Source: Mahella sp.
GTDB taxonomy: Bacteria > Bacillota > Clostridia > Mahellales > Mahellaceae
Direction: 5' to 3'
Length of the DNA: 64,000 nt
Assembly: GCF_020054945.1 (NCBI RefSeq)
Contig: NZ_JAIHAU010000005.1
Location: forward strand, 1 to 64,000
The stretch's first letter is position 1, and each line of letters starts with the position of its first letter. Of the stretch, positions 16,438 through 24,692 are shown one piece after another. The notes beneath the pieces are model-generated. The model saw only the letters and a list, made by a program, of their open reading frames with translations, had not been told where the DNA came from and ran no database searches. The position numbers and the translations under genes are program-made.

Positions 16438-17235
16438 TTAAGGGGTTTCATTTTTTGCTGATTGCCGGATCAGCGTCAATTTTCCATATAACGCATATCT
16501 TGCGTTGTTGAATTCATAGGAGCAGGTACACAAAGTGACGATCCTGTCATCAGCCTTAACAATCGTGTCGGATTTAAACGTTGACTCTTTTTTGAGCGAA
16601 TCAACATAGCTTTGAAAATCATGATCATCCTTGAAATCAAATCTGACAGATTCATAATTGCCATCAACAACAATTCCGGCGAACAGCTCAATCGTAAAGT
16701 CACCGGCAGGGGTATAAAGCAGCATGGTCGAGAAGTTGTCGTAATAACGTTGATCCTTGTACTTTGTCAAGGAGGAAAACATGGAACCATCTTTCATGTT
16801 ATGTCCGTATATAACCGTGTTTTTATCTGAAAAATCGCTGTTATTACGATAATCCATAAATATAGAACCCAGCTTGTTACGCTCACCGGTGAACAGATGG
16901 CGAAGATAGAAATCGTTGTCTTTTCCCTGTACCACGGGATAATCGATTGCCGTATCTTCAGCGGTAAGCCATCCCACTACGTCCGGATTGATTTTTTCAA
17001 GAGACGCGAAGTCGACTCCCTTTGCCTGTTCCTCTTGCTTTTCTTCTGATGATGCTTCACCGACAGTTTCCGGTGATTCCCGGATCAGGCGAACTTGCTG
17101 ATAGGAGGCATCACCCCTGGCATACTCCCGACTGTTTGAAAATAGGATGAAAGCGGAGCCCAGAATGCCCAACACGCATAGTATCATCAAAATATGCAGT
17201 ATCCGACGCGGGAGCGCTTCCCCAGAGTGTTTCAT
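16438..17235 (-). CDS. Class B sortase
   Basis: N-terminal TM; PVVQGKDNDFYLRHLFTGERNKLGSIFMDYRN; VIYGHNMKDGSMFSSL; VTLCTCSYEFNNARYALYGKL (TLxTC catalytic Cys and Arg). Confidence 0.9.
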   Translation of the reverse strand: MKHSGEALPRRILHILMILCVLGILGSAFILFSNSREYARGDASYQQVRLIRESPETVGEASSEEKQEEQAKGVDFASLEKINPDVVGWLTAEDTAIDYPVVQGKDNDFYLRHLFTGERNKLGSIFMDYRNNSDFSDKNTVIYGHNMKDGSMFSSLTKYKDQRYYDNFSTMLLYTPAGDFTIELFAGIVVDGNYESVRFDFKDDHDFQSYVDSLKKESTFKSDTIVKADDRIVTLCTCSYEFNNARYALYGKLTLIRQSAKNETP

Positions 17236-17262
17236 TACGTTATCCTTTCTATCCGAAAAAAA

Positions 17263-17291
17263 GGCGGCAGGATTTTATGCTTCCCGCCGCC
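17263..17291 (-). terminator. Rho-independent terminator after surface-protein gene
   Basis: Minus strand GGCGGCGGGA..TCCTGCCGCC followed by TTTTTTT; between the surface protein and sortase. Confidence 0.75.
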
Positions 17292-17305
17292 GGTTCTCTT
17301 TCTGA

Positions 17306-18162
17306 TTATTTACTGTTTCTCTGTCTGGAGTATTTCCTGCGCAGGGTGAAATCGGCGAAGGAAAGAACCACAAGCGCTACGGAGAAGCAAAGCAATCCGA
17401 ACATTGCAAGTCTGCCTGTCTGGTTATCGCCCGTGTCAGGCATGCCGTTTTCTCCTGTATCCGCAGGCCCCTGCGGGGCACCCCCATCGTCAGTGTTATC
17501 AGAGGGATTTTCAGGTGTTCCGGGTTTGACCGGAACACTATTCCGTTTGTTCGTAAACGATGCGGTCTGTAAAGCATCAGCATGGATGATGCCGCTAGCC
17601 CCTGTGCTTGAGGAGGTATACCCCTCTTTGGTATAATCGGCTTCCGTCACGGTGTATTGCGCGCCCTCCGGCAAGCCGGTGATCGTGATACTCTCTCCGT
17701 CTGCCAACAAGATGGATCCGCCGCTGCGGAGAGTTCCGGCCGACGAGCCTGTATAGGGGTAAGCGTCCGGCGCATCGGTAAAAGTGACGGTGAATTTGAA
17801 TTTTTTGGCGAGATCCGCGCCCTGGCCCGTGACCGTTTTGCTGATGGTAAGGCTGCCCACAGAAGCCGGTAGCTTTGTGTTGGTAAAGGCGGCCGTCTCA
17901 TCATATCCAGACGAAATAACTCCGGAGCTTCCTGCGCTTTCAACAGAATAACCCTGCGCTGAAGGATTTTCCTCGATCACCTGATACGCCGTGCCGGCGG
18001 GTAGGCCAGTGATGGTAATGCTCTGACCATGGGCTAGGGAAATGGTATCCCCGCTCTTAATAATTCCAGCCGGCACACCATTTCCCGTGTAATTATAGGT
18101 ACCGGATGCACCGTCGAAGGTTACCGTAAAATTAAACTTCTTTGCGGTATCGGCACCGTCAC
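17306..18162 (-). pseudogene. C-terminal portion of the repeat-containing surface protein, out of frame with the upstream ORF; MPDTG-type sorting signal, TM and basic tail
   Basis: ENGMPDTGDNQTGRLAMFGLLCFSVALVVLSFADFTLRRKYSRQ; the frame continues upstream of the listed 18076 start through DGADTAKKFNFTVTFDGASGTYNYTGNGVPAG to the 18162 junction. Confidence 0.75.
18064..18162. repeat. 99-bp exact direct repeat, copy 1 (copy 2 at 18644-18742)
   Basis: TTCCAGCCGGCACACCA...CGGCACCGTCAC appears identical in both copies, offset 580 bp, read by eye. Confidence 0.85.
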
Positions 18163-21100
18163 ATGCTTCCGGTCGCGCCTGTGCTGGTCTTCGTGTACCC
18201 GTCGCCGGAGTAGTCCTTTTCAGTCACCGTATATGTTATACCTGTCGGTAAGCCAGTGATGGTAATGCTCTGACCATGGGCGAGGGAAATGGTATCCCCG
18301 CTCCTGATCATTCCATCCGGCACACCATTTCCCGTGTAACTATAGGTACCGGATGCACCGCTGCCGTCCAGCGTAAGAGTAAAGTCAAATTTTTTCCTGG
18401 TATCTGCGGCGTTGCCTCCCACCGTTTTGCTGATGGTCAGATCCCCGACTGTTCTCGTGTTGGTGAAATATGCTGTTTGCGTAGTATCGGCCACGATGCT
18501 GCCGGTCGCGTCTGTGCTGGTAGTAGTGTACCCGTCGCCGGAGTAGTCCGCTTCAACCACCGTATATGTTGCATCCTTCGGTAAGCCCACGATGGTAATG
18601 CTCTGACCATGGGCTAGGGAAATGGTACCACCGCTCTTAATCGTTCCAGCCGGCACACCATTTCCCGTGTAATTATAGGTACCGGATGCACCGTCGAAGG
18701 TTACCGTAAAATTAAACTTCTTTGCGGTATCGGCACCGTCACGGGTCACGCTTTCCAAGGTATATCCGGCAGGTGCCGCTGTTTCCTGAAGGAGATATTC
18801 ACCATCGGGGATAACTTTAAGCCGAAGGGTACCGTCGCTGCCGGTGACACCTTTTTTGATGACAGTAGTGCCATCCATCGCGTATAGCGTGAATTCAGCA
18901 CCAGCAAGGGGTGCACCTGCTCCATCAGTTTTCGTAATTCTGATCCATCCATTCCTCTGCAGGCTGGCGCTGCCATCCGAAGCTGTAATAATGTACGGTT
19001 TGGACGTTTCTTCCTGCTCCGTGTCACTCCCCAGCAGAGACACTTTGTTCGTAACAGTTCCCGGCTCGCCCGTGATATCAGTGATATAACTGAAGCGATA
19101 AGCCTTTGTGCTGTCGGGAATAGCAAAGCCCAGTGTCCGCGTCGCGTTATCATAGCTCACGTTTGTCCCCAGCTCCAACGTAATAGGGTTCCCTACCGTA
19201 TAGCTCCCATTGGCGTTGAGTGTCATCTCGTTGGCCGTAATATTTCCCGCGAGCAGCAAAGCGCCACTTGAATCTGTACGCAGATCAATGCCTAGCGGCA
19301 ACGTATCCTCTATCCTTGCACCCGTATGCGCAAGGTCGTAGGGCTTGTAATCTACCGTCCAACGTAATTCACCCGCTTTTGGTTGCGTGGTGTCTTTAGC
19401 CAGAATTTGGCTGACAATGGTTACGTCCTGGTAGCTGCTTACGCCGGTAGTCCAGTTTTCGGTATTCAAAGTCACATTGTTGCGTTCCGTTTTCGTTTGA
19501 TTAACGGAGAAATACTGCGCTGCGGTTTCGCTGGTGGGCCTTGCCTTGACCAGAATCACATAAGGTTTGTTAAGCGACGTGAACGTAAAGGTCGCGGTTC
19601 CTCCGATGAAGCCTGTTGTAAGATCTGTAACCGTATCGGGCGTGGTATCTGTTGCCAGAACGGTTCCGTTGGATTGGCCGGTTCCTTCAAAAATCAGGTA
19701 CTTTGATCCTGAAACGATGTCGGCAAACTCCCATCCATTCGGCAGTGTGTCGGTAAGGGTTGCCGTTCCCAGCGCTTGTCCCACTGCGTTTGTCGCATTG
19801 GTCAAATTGATGCCGTCCGCATTGACGTTGAGCCGGAAAATAACCGACTTGTCCTGATAGTCGAAGCCCTCCAGCGCATTACTCGTAAGGCCGGAGTTTA
19901 CGCCAGACGCCGGATCAGACATCGCTTCCCGCTTTAACATCCCCTTAAGCAACATTCTGTTCGTATAATTCACATTTCCGGTCGCGACATTTAGCTTTGC
20001 GTTGGCGCTGAACAGCGTCGCCGTGTTCCGTACGGTAGACGTTTTGTTGCCGGCGAATATATTCGGGTCTACGACCTGACTGTCAAAGCTGAGGGTGTTC
20101 AATACGGTCGTAGACAAGCCCGTGATTTCCAGCAAATCGGCAACCTGAGTGGTGCCCTGCATAATGGGAATCACATTCACCGCTGTTGTTCCCGAGCCGG
20201 AAAAGTTTCCGGCATATTTCTGCCCGTAGCACGGCGTTAGATCGGTGGCAGTAATATCGTCGGGAATACCGGTAACCGCTCCGAGGTTGATGCTGTTCCC
20301 ATAAACAAGAAGATCATATACCTTCAAATCGGGAATGCTTTGGCCTTTAGTATCTACATTGACGGTCCAGTGAATTTTCTGGTTCGCAGTATCCGCTACG
20401 CCGGATTTTGATATTGCGTTATACCCAATCGTCACACCAACGCCGCCCGTACCGAGGCCGGGACCCGACAAGCCGTCCCAGCGAATACTGGCCGAATTAG
20501 TGTACGTTTTTGTTCCGGTCGTATATGCGTCGTCGGGAACATTGGTTACGATAGTAAGCAGAATCATTGAGTTGATGTCGCCAATGGCATAATTGCCGGA
20601 GGCATCGGGCGTGATGGAAGTCTCGGCACCCCAGTTTGAGCCTGTCCAGGCTTGCCATTTGGCGGTATCGAGGGTCAAGCCAGTCGGTAATGCATCGGTT
20701 ATGACGACATTATTCAACGTTGCCCCCATGTGGTTGGCCGTGATCGTCCAGGTAATTGTGCGGTTTGTCGGGTCGTAGTCGCCGGTGCTGCCGGCATCGC
20801 TTGACGCACCTGTTTTTTCAATCCATTTAGGCGTAAATTTGACCTCGAATTGCCCCTCGTCCACCACTGTTGATTCACTGTTTAGAAGCTGGGCTTTGTT
20901 GTTCACCGTTTGCTCGGAAGTGGCATAATACGCACTATCGGATATTTTTGTCTTGAATGTTATTGTCTTGGGGCTGGTTGAGCCGGATGGGAAGACATAA
21001 CGAAGAGCATTGTCCGCTGTATCAGGGGACGCATCCGCGCCGTCCACCTGAAATGACGATGTAATATATGTACCCACATTCTGCAAATCGTCAAAAAACT

Positions 21101-21785
21101 GATAGCCGGCTAAGTCAACGGCCGCTCCGCCCTGCGTCGCGCTGACATTGACCGTCCATGTAATGCTCTGGTCGGCCAGGTTCGCCGTACCAGTTTTTGT
21201 AACAGCGTACTCAATCGGCAAAGCAGGGACGTTCACCTTATATTCTTTTTCCAGTATTGTTACAATATGATCCCCCGTGCTGCCATTGGCGCCGCTGCTG
21301 TCATATTCAAAATTAGCGCCGAATTCACACGTTACGGTATTGGATGTTCCATCGAAAACCGAATCATCGCCGTCAAACGTGACCGTGGCAGACACTATAT
21401 TTGTATCGGGGTCCGTCGTAAAAGCCGCATGGCCTACCACCAGCGTTCCCATTTTTAATTCAATCGTGTCTCCCGGAAGCAGTTTGAACGCGTCGCTCAG
21501 GTCGAATGTCACCGTGTCACCTTTTTGTACCGGGTTCGCAGGTGTTGGATCGTCGCCCTCAACCGGCACGCCAAAAGAGATATACACCCGGATCGGCTTG
21601 GTGCTCGTTATGGTGCCTCCCTCGGGGATGGTTGCTCCATCCTGCGTGATTGTCGCTGTGAAGTTCGTAAGCACCGAGGCGTCGATATCCGCGGCATACG
21701 CTCCAATAGACGGCAAAAACACGTTTATAATCATCATCAGCGTCATCGTCCAGGCCATTAATAGTTGTCTTTTCCTTTTTACCAT
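18159..21785 (-). CDS. Large secreted surface protein with isopeptide/Cna_B-SpaA-type and repeated ISKTV..KKFxF domains, truncated at a stop within a repeat
   Basis: Signal peptide MVKRKRQLLMAWTMTLMMIINVFLPSIGAYAA (likely start 21785, not 21884); ITKTDGAGAPLAGAEFTLYAMDGT...GEYLLQETAAPAGYTL; ends ...STGATGSM* mid-repeat. Confidence 0.8.
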   Translation of the reverse strand: MVKRKRQLLMAWTMTLMMIINVFLPSIGAYAADIDASVLTNFTATITQDGATIPEGGTITSTKPIRVYISFGVPVEGDDPTPANPVQKGDTVTFDLSDAFKLLPGDTIELKMGTLVVGHAAFTTDPDTNIVSATVTFDGDDSVFDGTSNTVTCEFGANFEYDSSGANGSTGDHIVTILEKEYKVNVPALPIEYAVTKTGTANLADQSITWTVNVSATQGGAAVDLAGYQFFDDLQNVGTYITSSFQVDGADASPDTADNALRYVFPSGSTSPKTITFKTKISDSAYYATSEQTVNNKAQLLNSESTVVDEGQFEVKFTPKWIEKTGASSDAGSTGDYDPTNRTITWTITANHMGATLNNVVITDALPTGLTLDTAKWQAWTGSNWGAETSITPDASGNYAIGDINSMILLTIVTNVPDDAYTTGTKTYTNSASIRWDGLSGPGLGTGGVGVTIGYNAISKSGVADTANQKIHWTVNVDTKGQSIPDLKVYDLLVYGNSINLGAVTGIPDDITATDLTPCYGQKYAGNFSGSGTTAVNVIPIMQGTTQVADLLEITGLSTTVLNTLSFDSQVVDPNIFAGNKTSTVRNTATLFSANAKLNVATGNVNYTNRMLLKGMLKREAMSDPASGVNSGLTSNALEGFDYQDKSVIFRLNVNADGINLTNATNAVGQALGTATLTDTLPNGWEFADIVSGSKYLIFEGTGQSNGTVLATDTTPDTVTDLTTGFIGGTATFTFTSLNKPYVILVKARPTSETAAQYFSVNQTKTERNNVTLNTENWTTGVSSYQDVTIVSQILAKDTTQPKAGELRWTVDYKPYDLAHTGARIEDTLPLGIDLRTDSSGALLLAGNITANEMTLNANGSYTVGNPITLELGTNVSYDNATRTLGFAIPDSTKAYRFSYITDITGEPGTVTNKVSLLGSDTEQEETSKPYIITASDGSASLQRNGWIRITKTDGAGAPLAGAEFTLYAMDGTTVIKKGVTGSDGTLRLKVIPDGEYLLQETAAPAGYTLESVTRDGADTAKKFNFTVTFDGASGTYNYTGNGVPAGTIKSGGTISLAHGQSITIVGLPKDATYTVVEADYSGDGYTTTSTDATGSIVADTTQTAYFTNTRTVGDLTISKTVGGNAADTRKKFDFTLTLDGSGASGTYSYTGNGVPDGMIRSGDTISLAHGQSITITGLPTGITYTVTEKDYSGDGYTKTSTGATGSM

Positions 21786-21849
21786 ATCTCGTACCTGCTT
21801 TCTAATTAAAATTGTCAATATAGGTTGAGGCCCTGCTCCCGTGTCCATC

Positions 21850-21969
21850 GCGCCAATTTTTGCCGCTGACACCCAGTGGCTCAACCTGCTCGCCGGAACG
21901 TCAAGCTCTCTTGGCGCCCGTCTTTCTTATCCTAAAGTTTATCTCATTCAAAGTTGATTTGTCAACTTT
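21850..21969 (-). promoter_or_regulatory. Candidate promoter/leader of the surface-protein gene
   Basis: Hairpin/operator AAAGTTGA-CAAA-TCAACTTT at 21950-21969 overlapping TTGACA; downstream complementary arms GCGCCAA/TTGGCGC (21911-21917 / 21850-21856). Confidence 0.35.
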
Positions 21970-22222
21970 TATTTTTTATGGACAAAGCTGAAGAGTGAAA
22001 ACTCATAGATAGTAATATTTGTTAATGGATATCATATCCGTAATCATAAATCTCCAGAAGACACGTTTTTTTGGTATTGCATTCATAATTGTCTGCAAAA
22101 ACCGCTACCGATAGACTTGACCATCGCTAAAAAAAAAGCATGGCAAACAGGCGCCATCATTGTTGCTCATGACAGCGCCATTACTATTAATACAACTGTA
22201 TTATCCGACCATTGAGCCTATA

Positions 22223-22462
22223 TTATGGGCTGGCCGTAACTTGGAATATATTCTCGGTCACCATTTTCCATCGGTTTGTTTTCTTTTCTGCCATTGCACG
22301 AATTCGAGATACATCGATCCTGCCGTTGTATAGAGCGGCTTTGAAACTTCGGATAAGCCCACGCCACCCCTTTTTCTTAGTGTAATCGACAATTAACCCG
22401 CTGTAGGCAACCAGGGTGTTGAAGAAATGGGCAAACTTCATAAGATAGTGGTAAGCCTTCAT
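22223..22462 (-). pseudogene. C-terminal fragment of the DDE transposase in a different frame (internal deletion/frameshift)
   Basis: Upstream frame reads ..HQAMKAYHYLMKFAHFFNTL..., which resembles the C-terminus of transposases of this type (WxAMKxYHYLM); overlaps the 350-aa ORF end. Confidence 0.6.
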
Positions 22463-23511
22463 CGCCTGGTGTGGTTGTTTCCGTATGTGTACTCAATGCC
22501 ATTCGCCCATCGGATTGATTGAACGCGCTCTCCCCACTGCACTTCCAGCAGGTTTGACAGTTCGGCCTTCATCAAGCCCTCTGCATCGTCCCAAACCGAT
22601 GACATATCGCCGTCCTTCAAACTTAACATATACCCCCAATGATATTTGTTGCATATGGAAATAACAGGACCGCCTGCATACAGCCCATCGGCAACAAGTG
22701 TCAGCCCTCCACTGCCAAAGATTCTGTGAAGTTTCCCCGCCATGCGGTAGAATGCCGCCGTTTCGCAATCTTGTTTCTTGTCCCCGTCGACCTCTCCGTC
22801 GTTCTCAATCACTTCCGTGTACACAGGCAGTACGGCTCCGTTTTTGAGAACAAGGACGGCATTGAGGTAACTTGTGTAGAATTGCTCTTTCTTTTGCTCA
22901 CCAACGTGGCGACAGAGAGCATGTTTATCCCATCTGTAATCACGGACAAAACTCTGCGATCCGTCAACAACCACCAAGAGCGGCCCGTCTGCGTACTTGT
23001 CCCGAAACCCGGGACTGTTGATATACTCCTTGAGCATCTTTGTATATGCATCCTGGATTTCTTCTGCATTGATATTCTCAAGCATATTGGCTACGGTATC
23101 CGCATGAGGCATGGTCTTCATTTCGGGGAAGACTGCCTGCAAGATCCCTATTGCACCCATCCCTGCGAGTACTTCGTTCGCTGCTCGTCGGGATTCTACA
23201 TGAAACGCAAACATTAATATCACGTGAAGCAGAAGAACAAGCAATGAGTGGTCTTGATTTCTGAGGCTTCGGGGGTCATTCACTTCGCTGAGCTTCCATA
23301 TCAAGCCGGGGAAGATTATACGATAGACGCGCGCCAGTTGACCCAGCATTTGCTGCTGCTCATCCGTCCCCTCGGAGGCGATTTTATTCGGCAGAGGGCG
23401 TTTTTGAGGCTTTCCTATGTAGCATGCCAACTTGACCTTGCCAGAGAGGATATCGTCAAAAAGCTCGATGTCGCGCTCTTTTTGTTTTTCGAGCCTGCGT
23501 TTGTTACTCAT
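22459..23511 (-). pseudogene. DDE transposase, N-terminal/catalytic part, likely truncated
   Basis: LLVVVDGSQSFVRDYRWDKHAL, LTLVADGLYAGGPVISICNKYHWGYMLSLKDGDMSSVWDD; stops abruptly at YTYGNNHTRR*. Confidence 0.72.
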
Positions 23512-24418
23512 CTGCGTTTACCATCCTACAAGGTTTCTCCCCTTTGAGTACAGCTCGAAAGTCCTTCCGCAGAGGATACATTAATATGGCTTTCCGCGAC
23601 AGCCCCTGTTCATGGTACCTGTCCATCCGCCCCCGTCCCTGGGTCTCGCCAAGGTAAACCCAGTTGGCTGCGCGATAACTGGTGCCGTGATAAAACGCAG
23701 TGTCTACAAAAGTCTCTAAAAGCACAGGAGCATAGCAGTATGCTTCCAGCCAATCCTCACATATCCTATGTGCAGCTGCCGAGAGTGCGCGACTTGATAG
23801 GTTCCTTATATGTACCCAGGGCAGCAGGAGGAAGCGTGAATTGTTCACCACCAGGTTCAGTCTGGCTTTTCGGTCTTCCACGCTCCACCCAATCCATTCG
23901 TCGCGTTTTTGCAGTGCCCATGCTGCTGAGGAAAACTGTAAGCACCCCAGATCTACTCCATCAGATGTTATGAAGTATTGTAATTGCGCCCCATATGCAT
24001 GTTTATAGCCAATTGTGTGATACTCGCTTATGTATTCGCGCCAGCGACGGCGTTTGTTCGCATCATCAGCCAGTTCCAACGTAATGGCCCCACATTCCGT
24101 TATATCTGCCGGATGTGTGCTGTTTGCAGTCCTCGGCGCTGATTCTGAGTTTCCACCTGATCTCTTAACCGCTTTGCTGATCGGCAGTTTAATCAACCCA
24201 TTTGCTTCTAATATGTTCAGATACGCAGCACACTGCGGTTTCTTCGGCTTCCCGGCAGGCGTAACCCAGCCGATCAGCTCACAAACCGTTGAGGCTATCT
24301 CCGTCCTGGAAAGTTTCGGATATGTCCTGGTCACCCATATTATTGTCTCAATATCTTCAGGACTGAATGTCCTGCCGGAAAACACCCTGATAGTATCATC
24401 CATAGACTTGGCTCTCAC
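23504..24418 (-). CDS. DUF4338 (DruA-like) protein, 304 aa
   Basis: Characteristic C-terminal block GTSYRAANWVYLGETQGRGRMDRYHEQGLSRKAILMYPLRKDFRAVLKGEKP, as in DUF4338/DruA proteins; 8-bp overlap with transposase start. Confidence 0.8.
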   Translation of the reverse strand: MRAKSMDDTIRVFSGRTFSPEDIETIIWVTRTYPKLSRTEIASTVCELIGWVTPAGKPKKPQCAAYLNILEANGLIKLPISKAVKRSGGNSESAPRTANSTHPADITECGAITLELADDANKRRRWREYISEYHTIGYKHAYGAQLQYFITSDGVDLGCLQFSSAAWALQKRDEWIGWSVEDRKARLNLVVNNSRFLLLPWVHIRNLSSRALSAAAHRICEDWLEAYCYAPVLLETFVDTAFYHGTSYRAANWVYLGETQGRGRMDRYHEQGLSRKAILMYPLRKDFRAVLKGEKPCRMVNADE

Positions 24419-24692
24419 CTACCCTTCCAAGTCTATAGTAACACAACCCTTTTGGGAAGTCCAGCTTTATTTTTCATCCCAAAAACTTTTTTTGCCCCCG
24501 CTAAGTGTTGATATTGCTCACTTTCAGTTTTCTCTCTTCATTCGTGTTTTATGGAGCTATTTGCGCTGTACCTATTTTTCGTTCAAAGTCAGACAGTGTA
24601 CTAGCCTTGTCGTTCGGTAAGATTTGCGGATTATACCCTGTTTCTGATATCGTGATATAATATTAAAAACAGAATGAACGAGGTGTTATAAA

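What the first reader, a model, noticed from the sequence alone, without database searches (positions are those of the whole stretch)
21974..24555. Delimited mobile element with DUF4338/DruA-like cargo: imperfect TIRs plus a perfect 9-bp target duplication
Seen: TGAAGAGTGAAAACTCATAGATAGTAATAT (21989-22018) versus the inverted copy at 24511-24540 (24/30 identical). The 9-mer TTTTATGGA flanks both ends at the same 6-nt distance (21974-21982 and 24547-24555), giving ends 5'-CA...TG-3' and a ~2564-bp element. Inside are three overlapping minus-strand ORFs: a DUF4338 protein, a DDE transposase and a transposase tail. Established: DruA of the Druantia anti-phage system is a DUF4338 protein. Inference: this DUF4338 protein is a component or passenger of an IS-like element rather than part of a defence operon, which bears on where DruA came from.
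Basis: partly seen in the sequence, partly recalled or inferred. Interest (0 to 1): 0.82.

Follow-up and report, generated by a model that had tools for sequence, protein, structure and literature searches.

The report
Jumping gene carrying a Mom/DruA-like gene
The stretch is a real bacterial insertion sequence whose first gene is a small relative of the phage-defence protein DruA; the same small gene is built into at least five unrelated insertion-sequence families and resembles phage Mu's DNA-modifying enzyme Mom, so some 'jumping genes' may carry their own DNA-marking enzyme.

Summary
Confirmed. Window 21983-24546 is a 2,564-bp insertion sequence of ISAs1 type: 24/30 inverted ends, 5'-CA...TG-3' termini and a perfect 9-bp target duplication. 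Relatives fix the boundaries: all four complete copies in genome G617 have CA-ends and perfect 9-bp duplications, as does a same-genus copy (L108). The 304-aa protein is a Pfam DruA (PF14236/DUF4338) member, E=2e-43. The 'transposase' and 'tail' are one 508-aa gene broken by a 241-bp deletion, whose junction may be an assembly artefact.

The wider finding: this short DruA ('mini-DruA') is a standard accessory gene of insertion sequences, not chance cargo. Of 55 mini-DruA loci examined, 49 have a DDE transposase immediately downstream or fused C-terminally: ISAs1, IS66, IS4/Tn5-like, ISAzo13 or DDE_5 (IS701-like). It lies inside family-typical ends and duplications (8-10 bp ISAs1, 8 bp IS66, CTAA for DDE_5) and is as constrained as the transposase (dN/dS 0.12-0.14). 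Druantia-type DruA never has this neighbour and forms a separate clade. Profile comparison makes mini-DruA the bridge between phage Mom, a DNA-modifying GNAT, and Druantia DruA; those two do not match each other directly. Most likely function, inferred: a GNAT acyltransferase acting on DNA during transposition.

The parts
21974..21982 (.). Left copy of 9-bp target-site duplication TTTTATGGA
24547..24555 (.). Right copy of 9-bp target-site duplication TTTTATGGA
21983..22018 (+). Terminal inverted repeat, transposase side: CA-AAGC-TGAAGAGTGAAAACTC...
   Evidence: 24/30 with the other end; CA...TGAAGAG also in C70, L009, L010
24511..24546 (-). Terminal inverted repeat, DruA side: CA-CGAA-TGAAGAGAGAAAACTG...
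23504..24418 (-). mini-DruA (PF14236/DUF4338) gene, 304 aa from GTG 24418; likelier start ATG at 24403; N-terminal helical DNA-binding-like region plus Mom/GNAT-like domain
   Evidence: PF14236 E=2e-43; hhalign to Mom 96.7%; dN/dS 0.125 against L009
22459..23511 (-). ISAs1-type DDE transposase, N-terminal 350 aa (PF13808), ATG overlapping the DruA stop by 8 nt
   Evidence: intact 508-aa homologue in L009
22223..22462 (-). C-terminal tail of the same transposase, out of frame after the deletion
22464..22465 (-). Junction of the 241-bp deletion that removes the segment with the third catalytic (E/K) motif; also base 1 of contig C70, so possibly an assembly artefact
24402..24436 (-). 10-bp inverted repeat ATAGACTTGG/CCAAGTCTAT; RNA hairpin with the ribosome-binding site in the loop and the start codon at the stem base
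   Evidence: MFE -21.5 kcal/mol, z -3.97; conserved in L009, L010, L012

Best explanation
This is an insertion sequence of ISAs1 type with two genes read from one strand: first a short DruA-family protein (mini-DruA), then, overlapping by 8 nt, a DDE transposase. SHOWN: the element's ends and 9-bp duplication; that mini-DruA lies inside the ends in this and related elements; that it is under purifying selection equal to the transposase's; that the same gene is joined, upstream or fused N-terminally, to five different DDE transposase families; that its sequence profile is related both to phage Mom and to Druantia DruA. INFERRED: mini-DruA is a GNAT-type acyltransferase brought to DNA by its own N-terminal region, by co-translation with the transposase or by fusion, and it chemically modifies DNA bases (as Mom does to adenines) at the element's ends, on the transposition intermediate or on the new copy. 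That would shield the element from host nucleases or restriction, or mark it so that re-cutting or self-insertion is limited. The start-codon hairpin is inferred to damp expression by read-through transcripts, as described for IS10 and IS50 (own knowledge). The window copy as assembled could not move itself, because its transposase lacks the third catalytic segment.
For: Ends and duplications: (6 of 19 loci scanned give inverted ends plus an 8-10 bp duplication, against 3 of 570 shuffled controls). DruA identity. Transposase family. Census: 49 of 55 mini-DruA loci with a downstream or fused DDE transposase, 0 of 7 Druantia-type, 0 of 5 long DruA variants (L099 moved to the Druantia-type by me, see full report). 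Five transposase families by Pfam. Partner families cluster on the mini-DruA tree, 14 changes against 34.3 shuffled. dN/dS 0.12-0.14 for mini-DruA, 0.12-0.18 for transposases. Mom link: Pfam Mom hits in 14 of 26 members, best 1.4e-5; hhalign mini-DruA/Mom 96.7%, E 4e-10 over 164 columns, negative controls 0.2-0.3%. Independent statement that DUF4338 is a GNAT domain: PMC10853773. Mom as a GNAT that modifies adenine in DNA: PMC7824862.
Against: No structure supports the GNAT fold here: the AlphaFold model was poor (mean pLDDT 57.6) and Foldseek found nothing significant. Homology to Mom does not prove the same substrate; most GNATs acylate proteins or small molecules. Several fused forms lack the N-terminal region. 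The C-terminal Mom-like motif is recast in Druantia DruA, so catalysis cannot be assumed across the family. One locus (L075) has mini-DruA with no transposase beside it. The window transposase is broken as assembled.
Confidence: 0.68

Rival explanations
1. Mini-DruA is a catalytically dead GNAT fold used only as a DNA-binding adaptor: it helps bind the ends, assemble the synapse or choose targets.
For: Helical N-terminal region modelled with fair confidence (pLDDT about 80) and weak HTH_32 hits in 5 of 26 members; tight coupling or fusion to transposases.
Against: Residues invariant in the Mom family (H, D, Y, N of the GNAT-like motif) are kept across mini-DruAs; unrelated transposases with different ends all use it, which fits a general chemical activity better than a specific end-binder; some fusions lack the N-terminal region.
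Confidence: 0.25
2. Mini-DruA is an acyltransferase acting on a protein (transposase, host nucleoid protein or replication factor) to control transposition.
For: GNATs commonly acetylate proteins; co-expression and fusion would place it beside the transposase.
Against: The nearest characterised relative by profile is Mom, which acts on DNA (PMC7824862). Partnering five unrelated transposases argues against one transposase surface as the substrate.
Confidence: 0.15
3. Mini-DruA is a stand-alone anti-phage passenger that pays its way by protecting the host cell.
For: Family name and membership in PF14236.
Against: No other Druantia component nearby; only a weak PADLOC DruA match (E 5e-4); selection and synteny track the transposase, and many copies are fused to it.
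Confidence: 0.07
4. Ordinary IS with accidental capture of a neighbouring gene.
For: A single element seen alone could be read so.
Against: Recurs in many genomes with the same order, coupling, selection and family-typical ends.
Confidence: 0.02

Closest known systems
ISAs1-family insertion sequences
   Same: DDE_Tnp_1_assoc/DDE_Tnp_1 transposase, CA...TG ends, 8-10 bp target duplication (the duplication range for the family is own knowledge)
   Different: Longer (2.56 kb in place of roughly 1.2-1.5 kb, own knowledge) with an extra upstream mini-DruA gene; some relatives have it fused to the transposase
Phage Mu Mom and the Mom-like DNA modification family (PF25680, GNAT)
   Same: Profile similarity over 164 columns; shared H...[ST]F[AV]D...G..Y.A.N[FW]...G motif; Mu is itself a transposing element with a DDE transposase
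   Different: Mini-DruA has an extra N-terminal region, sits in small insertion sequences, and no DNA modification has been shown for it
DruA of the Druantia anti-phage system (PF14236)
   Same: Pfam family, RD..IGW motif, profile match 97%
   Different: Druantia-type DruA is longer, matches the profile end to end, has no transposase neighbour, does not match Mom directly, and forms its own clade
IS66, IS4/Tn5-like, ISAzo13 and DDE_5 (IS701-like) elements carrying mini-DruA
   Same: Same upstream or N-terminal mini-DruA, inside the element's own ends where these could be found
   Different: Unrelated transposases and ends; 8-bp (IS66) or CTAA (DDE_5) duplications
DUF4338 GNAT domain fused to DndF (PMC10853773)
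   Same: Same Pfam domain, interpreted there as GNAT
   Different: Part of a phosphorothioate-dependent defence protein, not a transposon

Membership tests
ISAs1 insertion sequence | Transposase with DDE_Tnp_1_assoc and DDE_Tnp_1 domains | tested here: met
   PF13808 in the window protein; both domains in the intact homologue L009
ISAs1 insertion sequence | Complete DDE catalytic triad | tested here: not met
   The window copy as assembled lacks the third-residue segment; present in L009 and others; may be an assembly artefact
ISAs1 insertion sequence | Terminal inverted repeats and 8-10 bp target duplication | tested here: met
ISAs1 insertion sequence | Single transposase gene only | tested here: not met
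   An extra mini-DruA gene lies within the ends
Druantia defence system | Full-length DruA matching the whole PF14236 profile | tested here: not met
   Window match covers profile 58-226 of 297; Druantia-type L122 covers 1-297
Druantia defence system | Adjacent Druantia components such as the DruE helicase | tested here: not met
   No Druantia component among the eight neighbouring proteins scanned
Mom-like DNA modification enzymes | Sequence-profile homology to Mom | tested here: met
   hhalign 96.7%, E 4e-10; Pfam Mom in 14 of 26 members; the window protein itself is below Pfam's cut-off (19.5 against 27.1 bits)
Mom-like DNA modification enzymes | Conserved motif residues of Mom | tested here: met
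   Mom H48, D139, G146, Y149, A151, N153 align with H134, D239, G245, Y248, A250, N252; D239 is not invariant
Mom-like DNA modification enzymes | Acyl modification of adenine in DNA | not testable with these tools
   Needs biochemistry
GNAT fold | GNAT three-dimensional fold | tested here: inconclusive
   Poor AlphaFold model, no significant Foldseek hit; GNAT assignment rests on Mom homology and PMC10853773

The most novel reading that the evidence does not exclude
Several unrelated insertion-sequence families have each recruited the same Mom-like enzyme, so there are 'self-marking' insertion sequences that chemically modify their own DNA (or the target) as part of transposition, and the Druantia defence protein DruA descends from this same Mom-like line.
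Probability: 0.38. Interest if true: 0.85.

Novelty: new variant of a known kind. Interest (0 to 1): 0.62.

Why it matters
Insertion sequences are usually thought of as little more than a transposase between two ends. A conserved accessory gene shared by five unrelated families suggests a common obstacle in transposition that one enzyme solves. The link from phage Mom through insertion sequences to Druantia DruA gives a concrete guess at what DruA does chemically and makes it testable. It also warns that annotating PF14236 proteins as 'Druantia DruA' misnames many transposon genes as defence genes: in the sample here the short, transposon-linked kind is the commoner one.

Tried and rejected
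Empty-site search with joined flanks in the three same-genus genomes: no clean empty site. The right-hand gene is conserved in G001 and G002 without the element beside it, and the right flank begins with a dispersed repeat of about 76 bp. L009 has no matching target duplication. A single-sequence hhalign against Mom was only suggestive (4.8%) until both sides were alignments. AlphaFold on six sequences was too shallow; its Foldseek search gave only noise. PDB sequence search: no relative. Phage records: no close match. Rfam: nothing in the element. The idea that the 6 nt outside TGAAGAG are carried-over flanking DNA was dropped: CA is constant and CACGG- recurs. A first TIR/TSD control script mis-registered 9-10 bp duplications and was corrected. 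Literature searches found no description of DUF4338 as a transposon gene, but the library lacks most subscription journals, and ISfinder could not be searched.

Full report
OBSERVATION. The window holds TTTTATGGA at 21974-21982 and 24547-24555, and between them a 2,564-bp segment whose ends are CAAAGCTGAAGAGTGAAAACTC... and, inverted, CACGAATGAAGAGAGAAAACTG.... The 30-nt inner repeat is 24/30 identical, where shuffled ends never exceeded 20; a perfect 9-mer at that one offset has p about 4e-6.

BOUNDARIES. A second, partial copy on contig C70 of the same genome (94% identical) and relatives L009 (Firmicutes UBA4882) and L010 (UBA4874) keep CA, four loosely conserved bases, then TGAAGAG. In a more distant genome of the phylum (G617) five copies of a homologous two-gene element are present. 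The four with both ends have CAGTGCTGACGCAT at each end and perfect 9-bp duplications AGTGGCAAA, ACACTTGAC, CCAGGACCA and GAGGCGATT; two are 99.98% identical to each other, so movement is recent. A same-genus copy (L108) has CAGGGGTGAAG ends and the 9-bp duplication GCGATGCTC. The CA...TG boundary and 9-bp duplication are therefore general for this kind of element.

GENES. Both genes are on the minus strand. The 304-aa protein hits PF14236 (DruA/DUF4338) at E=2e-43 and only weakly PADLOC's DruA1 (5e-4). It overlaps the next ATG by 8 nt. The next protein has DDE_Tnp_1_assoc; the intact relative in L009 is 508 aa and also shows DDE_Tnp_1, which is the ISAs1-type transposase. The window's 350-aa and 79-aa ORFs are halves of this gene, separated by a clean 241-bp out-of-frame deletion that removes the E/K motif segment. 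The junction is exactly base 1 of contig C70, followed by 99 identical bases, and the missing segment is found nowhere else in the draft genome. Such a coincidence is typical of an assembly join, so I do not claim the deletion is real. Upstream of mini-DruA a 10-bp inverted repeat puts the ribosome-binding site in a hairpin loop and the likely start codon at the stem base (z -3.97). It is kept in L009, L010 and L012, and a hairpin of different sequence in the same place is predicted in the G617 element (z -4.23); other elements show weak or no signal.

NOT CHANCE CARGO. A Pfam search over 399 phylum genomes found PF14236 in 48. Hits fall into a long type matching the profile end to end (Druantia-type), a long variant of about 690 aa, and a short type like ours. 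Neighbour analysis of the fetched loci gave 49 of 56 short-type loci with a DDE transposase on the same strand immediately downstream or fused; I removed L099 because its fragments cover the profile like a Druantia-type, leaving 49 of 55. Of the six without, two end at the contig edge, L088 lies near one, L106 is rearranged, L117 is decayed, and only L075 is plainly alone. None of 7 Druantia-type and 5 long-variant loci has a transposase there. Several of the 55 are copies from one genome (G617 gives five), so they are not all independent. Transposases by Pfam: ISAs1 (separate or fused), IS66, Tn5-like IS4 (separate or fused), ISAzo13 (separate or fused), and DDE_5 (fused). Mini-DruA is first in every pair.

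INSIDE THE ELEMENTS. A scan for inverted ends plus an 8-10 bp duplication found both for 6 of 19 loci against 3 of 570 shuffled controls. IS66-type L078 and L125 have GTAACTACTCAG ends and 8-bp duplications; ISAs1-type L070 and L108 have 8 or 9 bp; ISAs1 fusions L095 and L084 have 9 and 10 bp. The two DDE_5 fusions have ACTACAGCG ends and the 4-bp duplication CTAA, which fits IS701-type targets (own knowledge). Mini-DruA is inside the ends in each. For the Tn5-like and ISAzo13 types no complete set of ends was found.

SELECTION AND HISTORY. dN/dS for mini-DruA is 0.12-0.14 in close pairs (0.17-0.22 against the damaged L010 copy) and 0.12-0.18 for transposases. On a maximum-likelihood tree the partner family explains the clades (14 changes against 34.3 for shuffled labels). 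The ISAzo13 group lies among ISAs1 ones, indicating a partner switch, and Druantia-type DruA is a single separate clade at 100/100 support. Druantia DruA is therefore not nested within the IS-borne ones; the direction of descent cannot be read from this unrooted tree.

WHAT THE PROTEIN IS. Fourteen of 26 members hit Pfam's Mom family, best 1.4e-5. An alignment of 10 phage Mom proteins, Mu's included, matches the 29-member mini-DruA profile with 96.7% probability, E 4e-10 over 164 columns. Mini-DruA also matches Druantia-type DruA at 97.0%, while Mom against Druantia DruA gives 0.3% and both against the transposase give 0.2-0.3%. E-values here are for single comparisons. Residues invariant in Mom (H48, D139, G146, Y149, A151, N153) align with H134, D239, G245, Y248, A250 and N252 of the window protein. 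Mom is a GNAT enzyme that modifies adenines (PMC7824862), and DUF4338 has been called a GNAT domain in DndF proteins (PMC10853773). My structure model was too poor to test the fold.

MECHANISM. I favour a DNA-directed acyltransferase acting with the transposase. The fold and substrate are inferred from homology; where and why it modifies DNA is conjecture. A dead-enzyme DNA adaptor is the main rival.

NOVELTY. In the open library only three papers mention DUF4338, and the one passage read treats it as a fusion domain of DndF; I found no account of it as an IS gene. ISfinder and subscription papers could not be searched, and such fusions may be listed there. I file the element as a new variant of a known kind. 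The general pattern is the interesting part.

Noticed in passing
window 24555-24630: The right flank starts with a dispersed repeat of about 76 bp (GAGCTATTTGCGCTGTACCTATTTTTCG...), present several times in this genome (C52, C47, C28, C20) and in same-genus G001; nature unknown.
   Followed up: partly
window 22464-22465 and G000 contig C70 base 1: A deletion junction and a contig end fall on the same base with 99 identical bases following; probable assembly artefact.
   Followed up: partly
L092 3329-5395 and 14751-16904, L094 2443-4512, L073 3104-5125, L098: A third DruA type, proteins of about 690 aa (1246-aa frame in L098) with the DruA match split in two by an insert; L094 has an AAA-like ATPase gene directly downstream; possibly another uncharacterised system.
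   Followed up: no
L066 and L067: Two 99.98% identical copies of the G617 element share an unrelated transposon of about 2.1 kb (625-aa protein) inserted near the 5' end, so the composite unit has moved whole.
   Followed up: no
L126/L127 (viral contig IMGVR_UViG_3300048503_000080): Mini-DruA + IS66-type copies lie near both ends of a 42.7-kb viral contig in opposite orientation.
   Followed up: no
L075 3333-4283: A mini-DruA with no transposase beside it: decayed element, non-autonomous form or domesticated copy.
   Followed up: partly
window 16438-21884: Sortase gene and two adhesin-like SpaA/DUF7601 genes (1241 and 256 aa) beside the insertion, apparently a surface-protein cluster.
   Followed up: no
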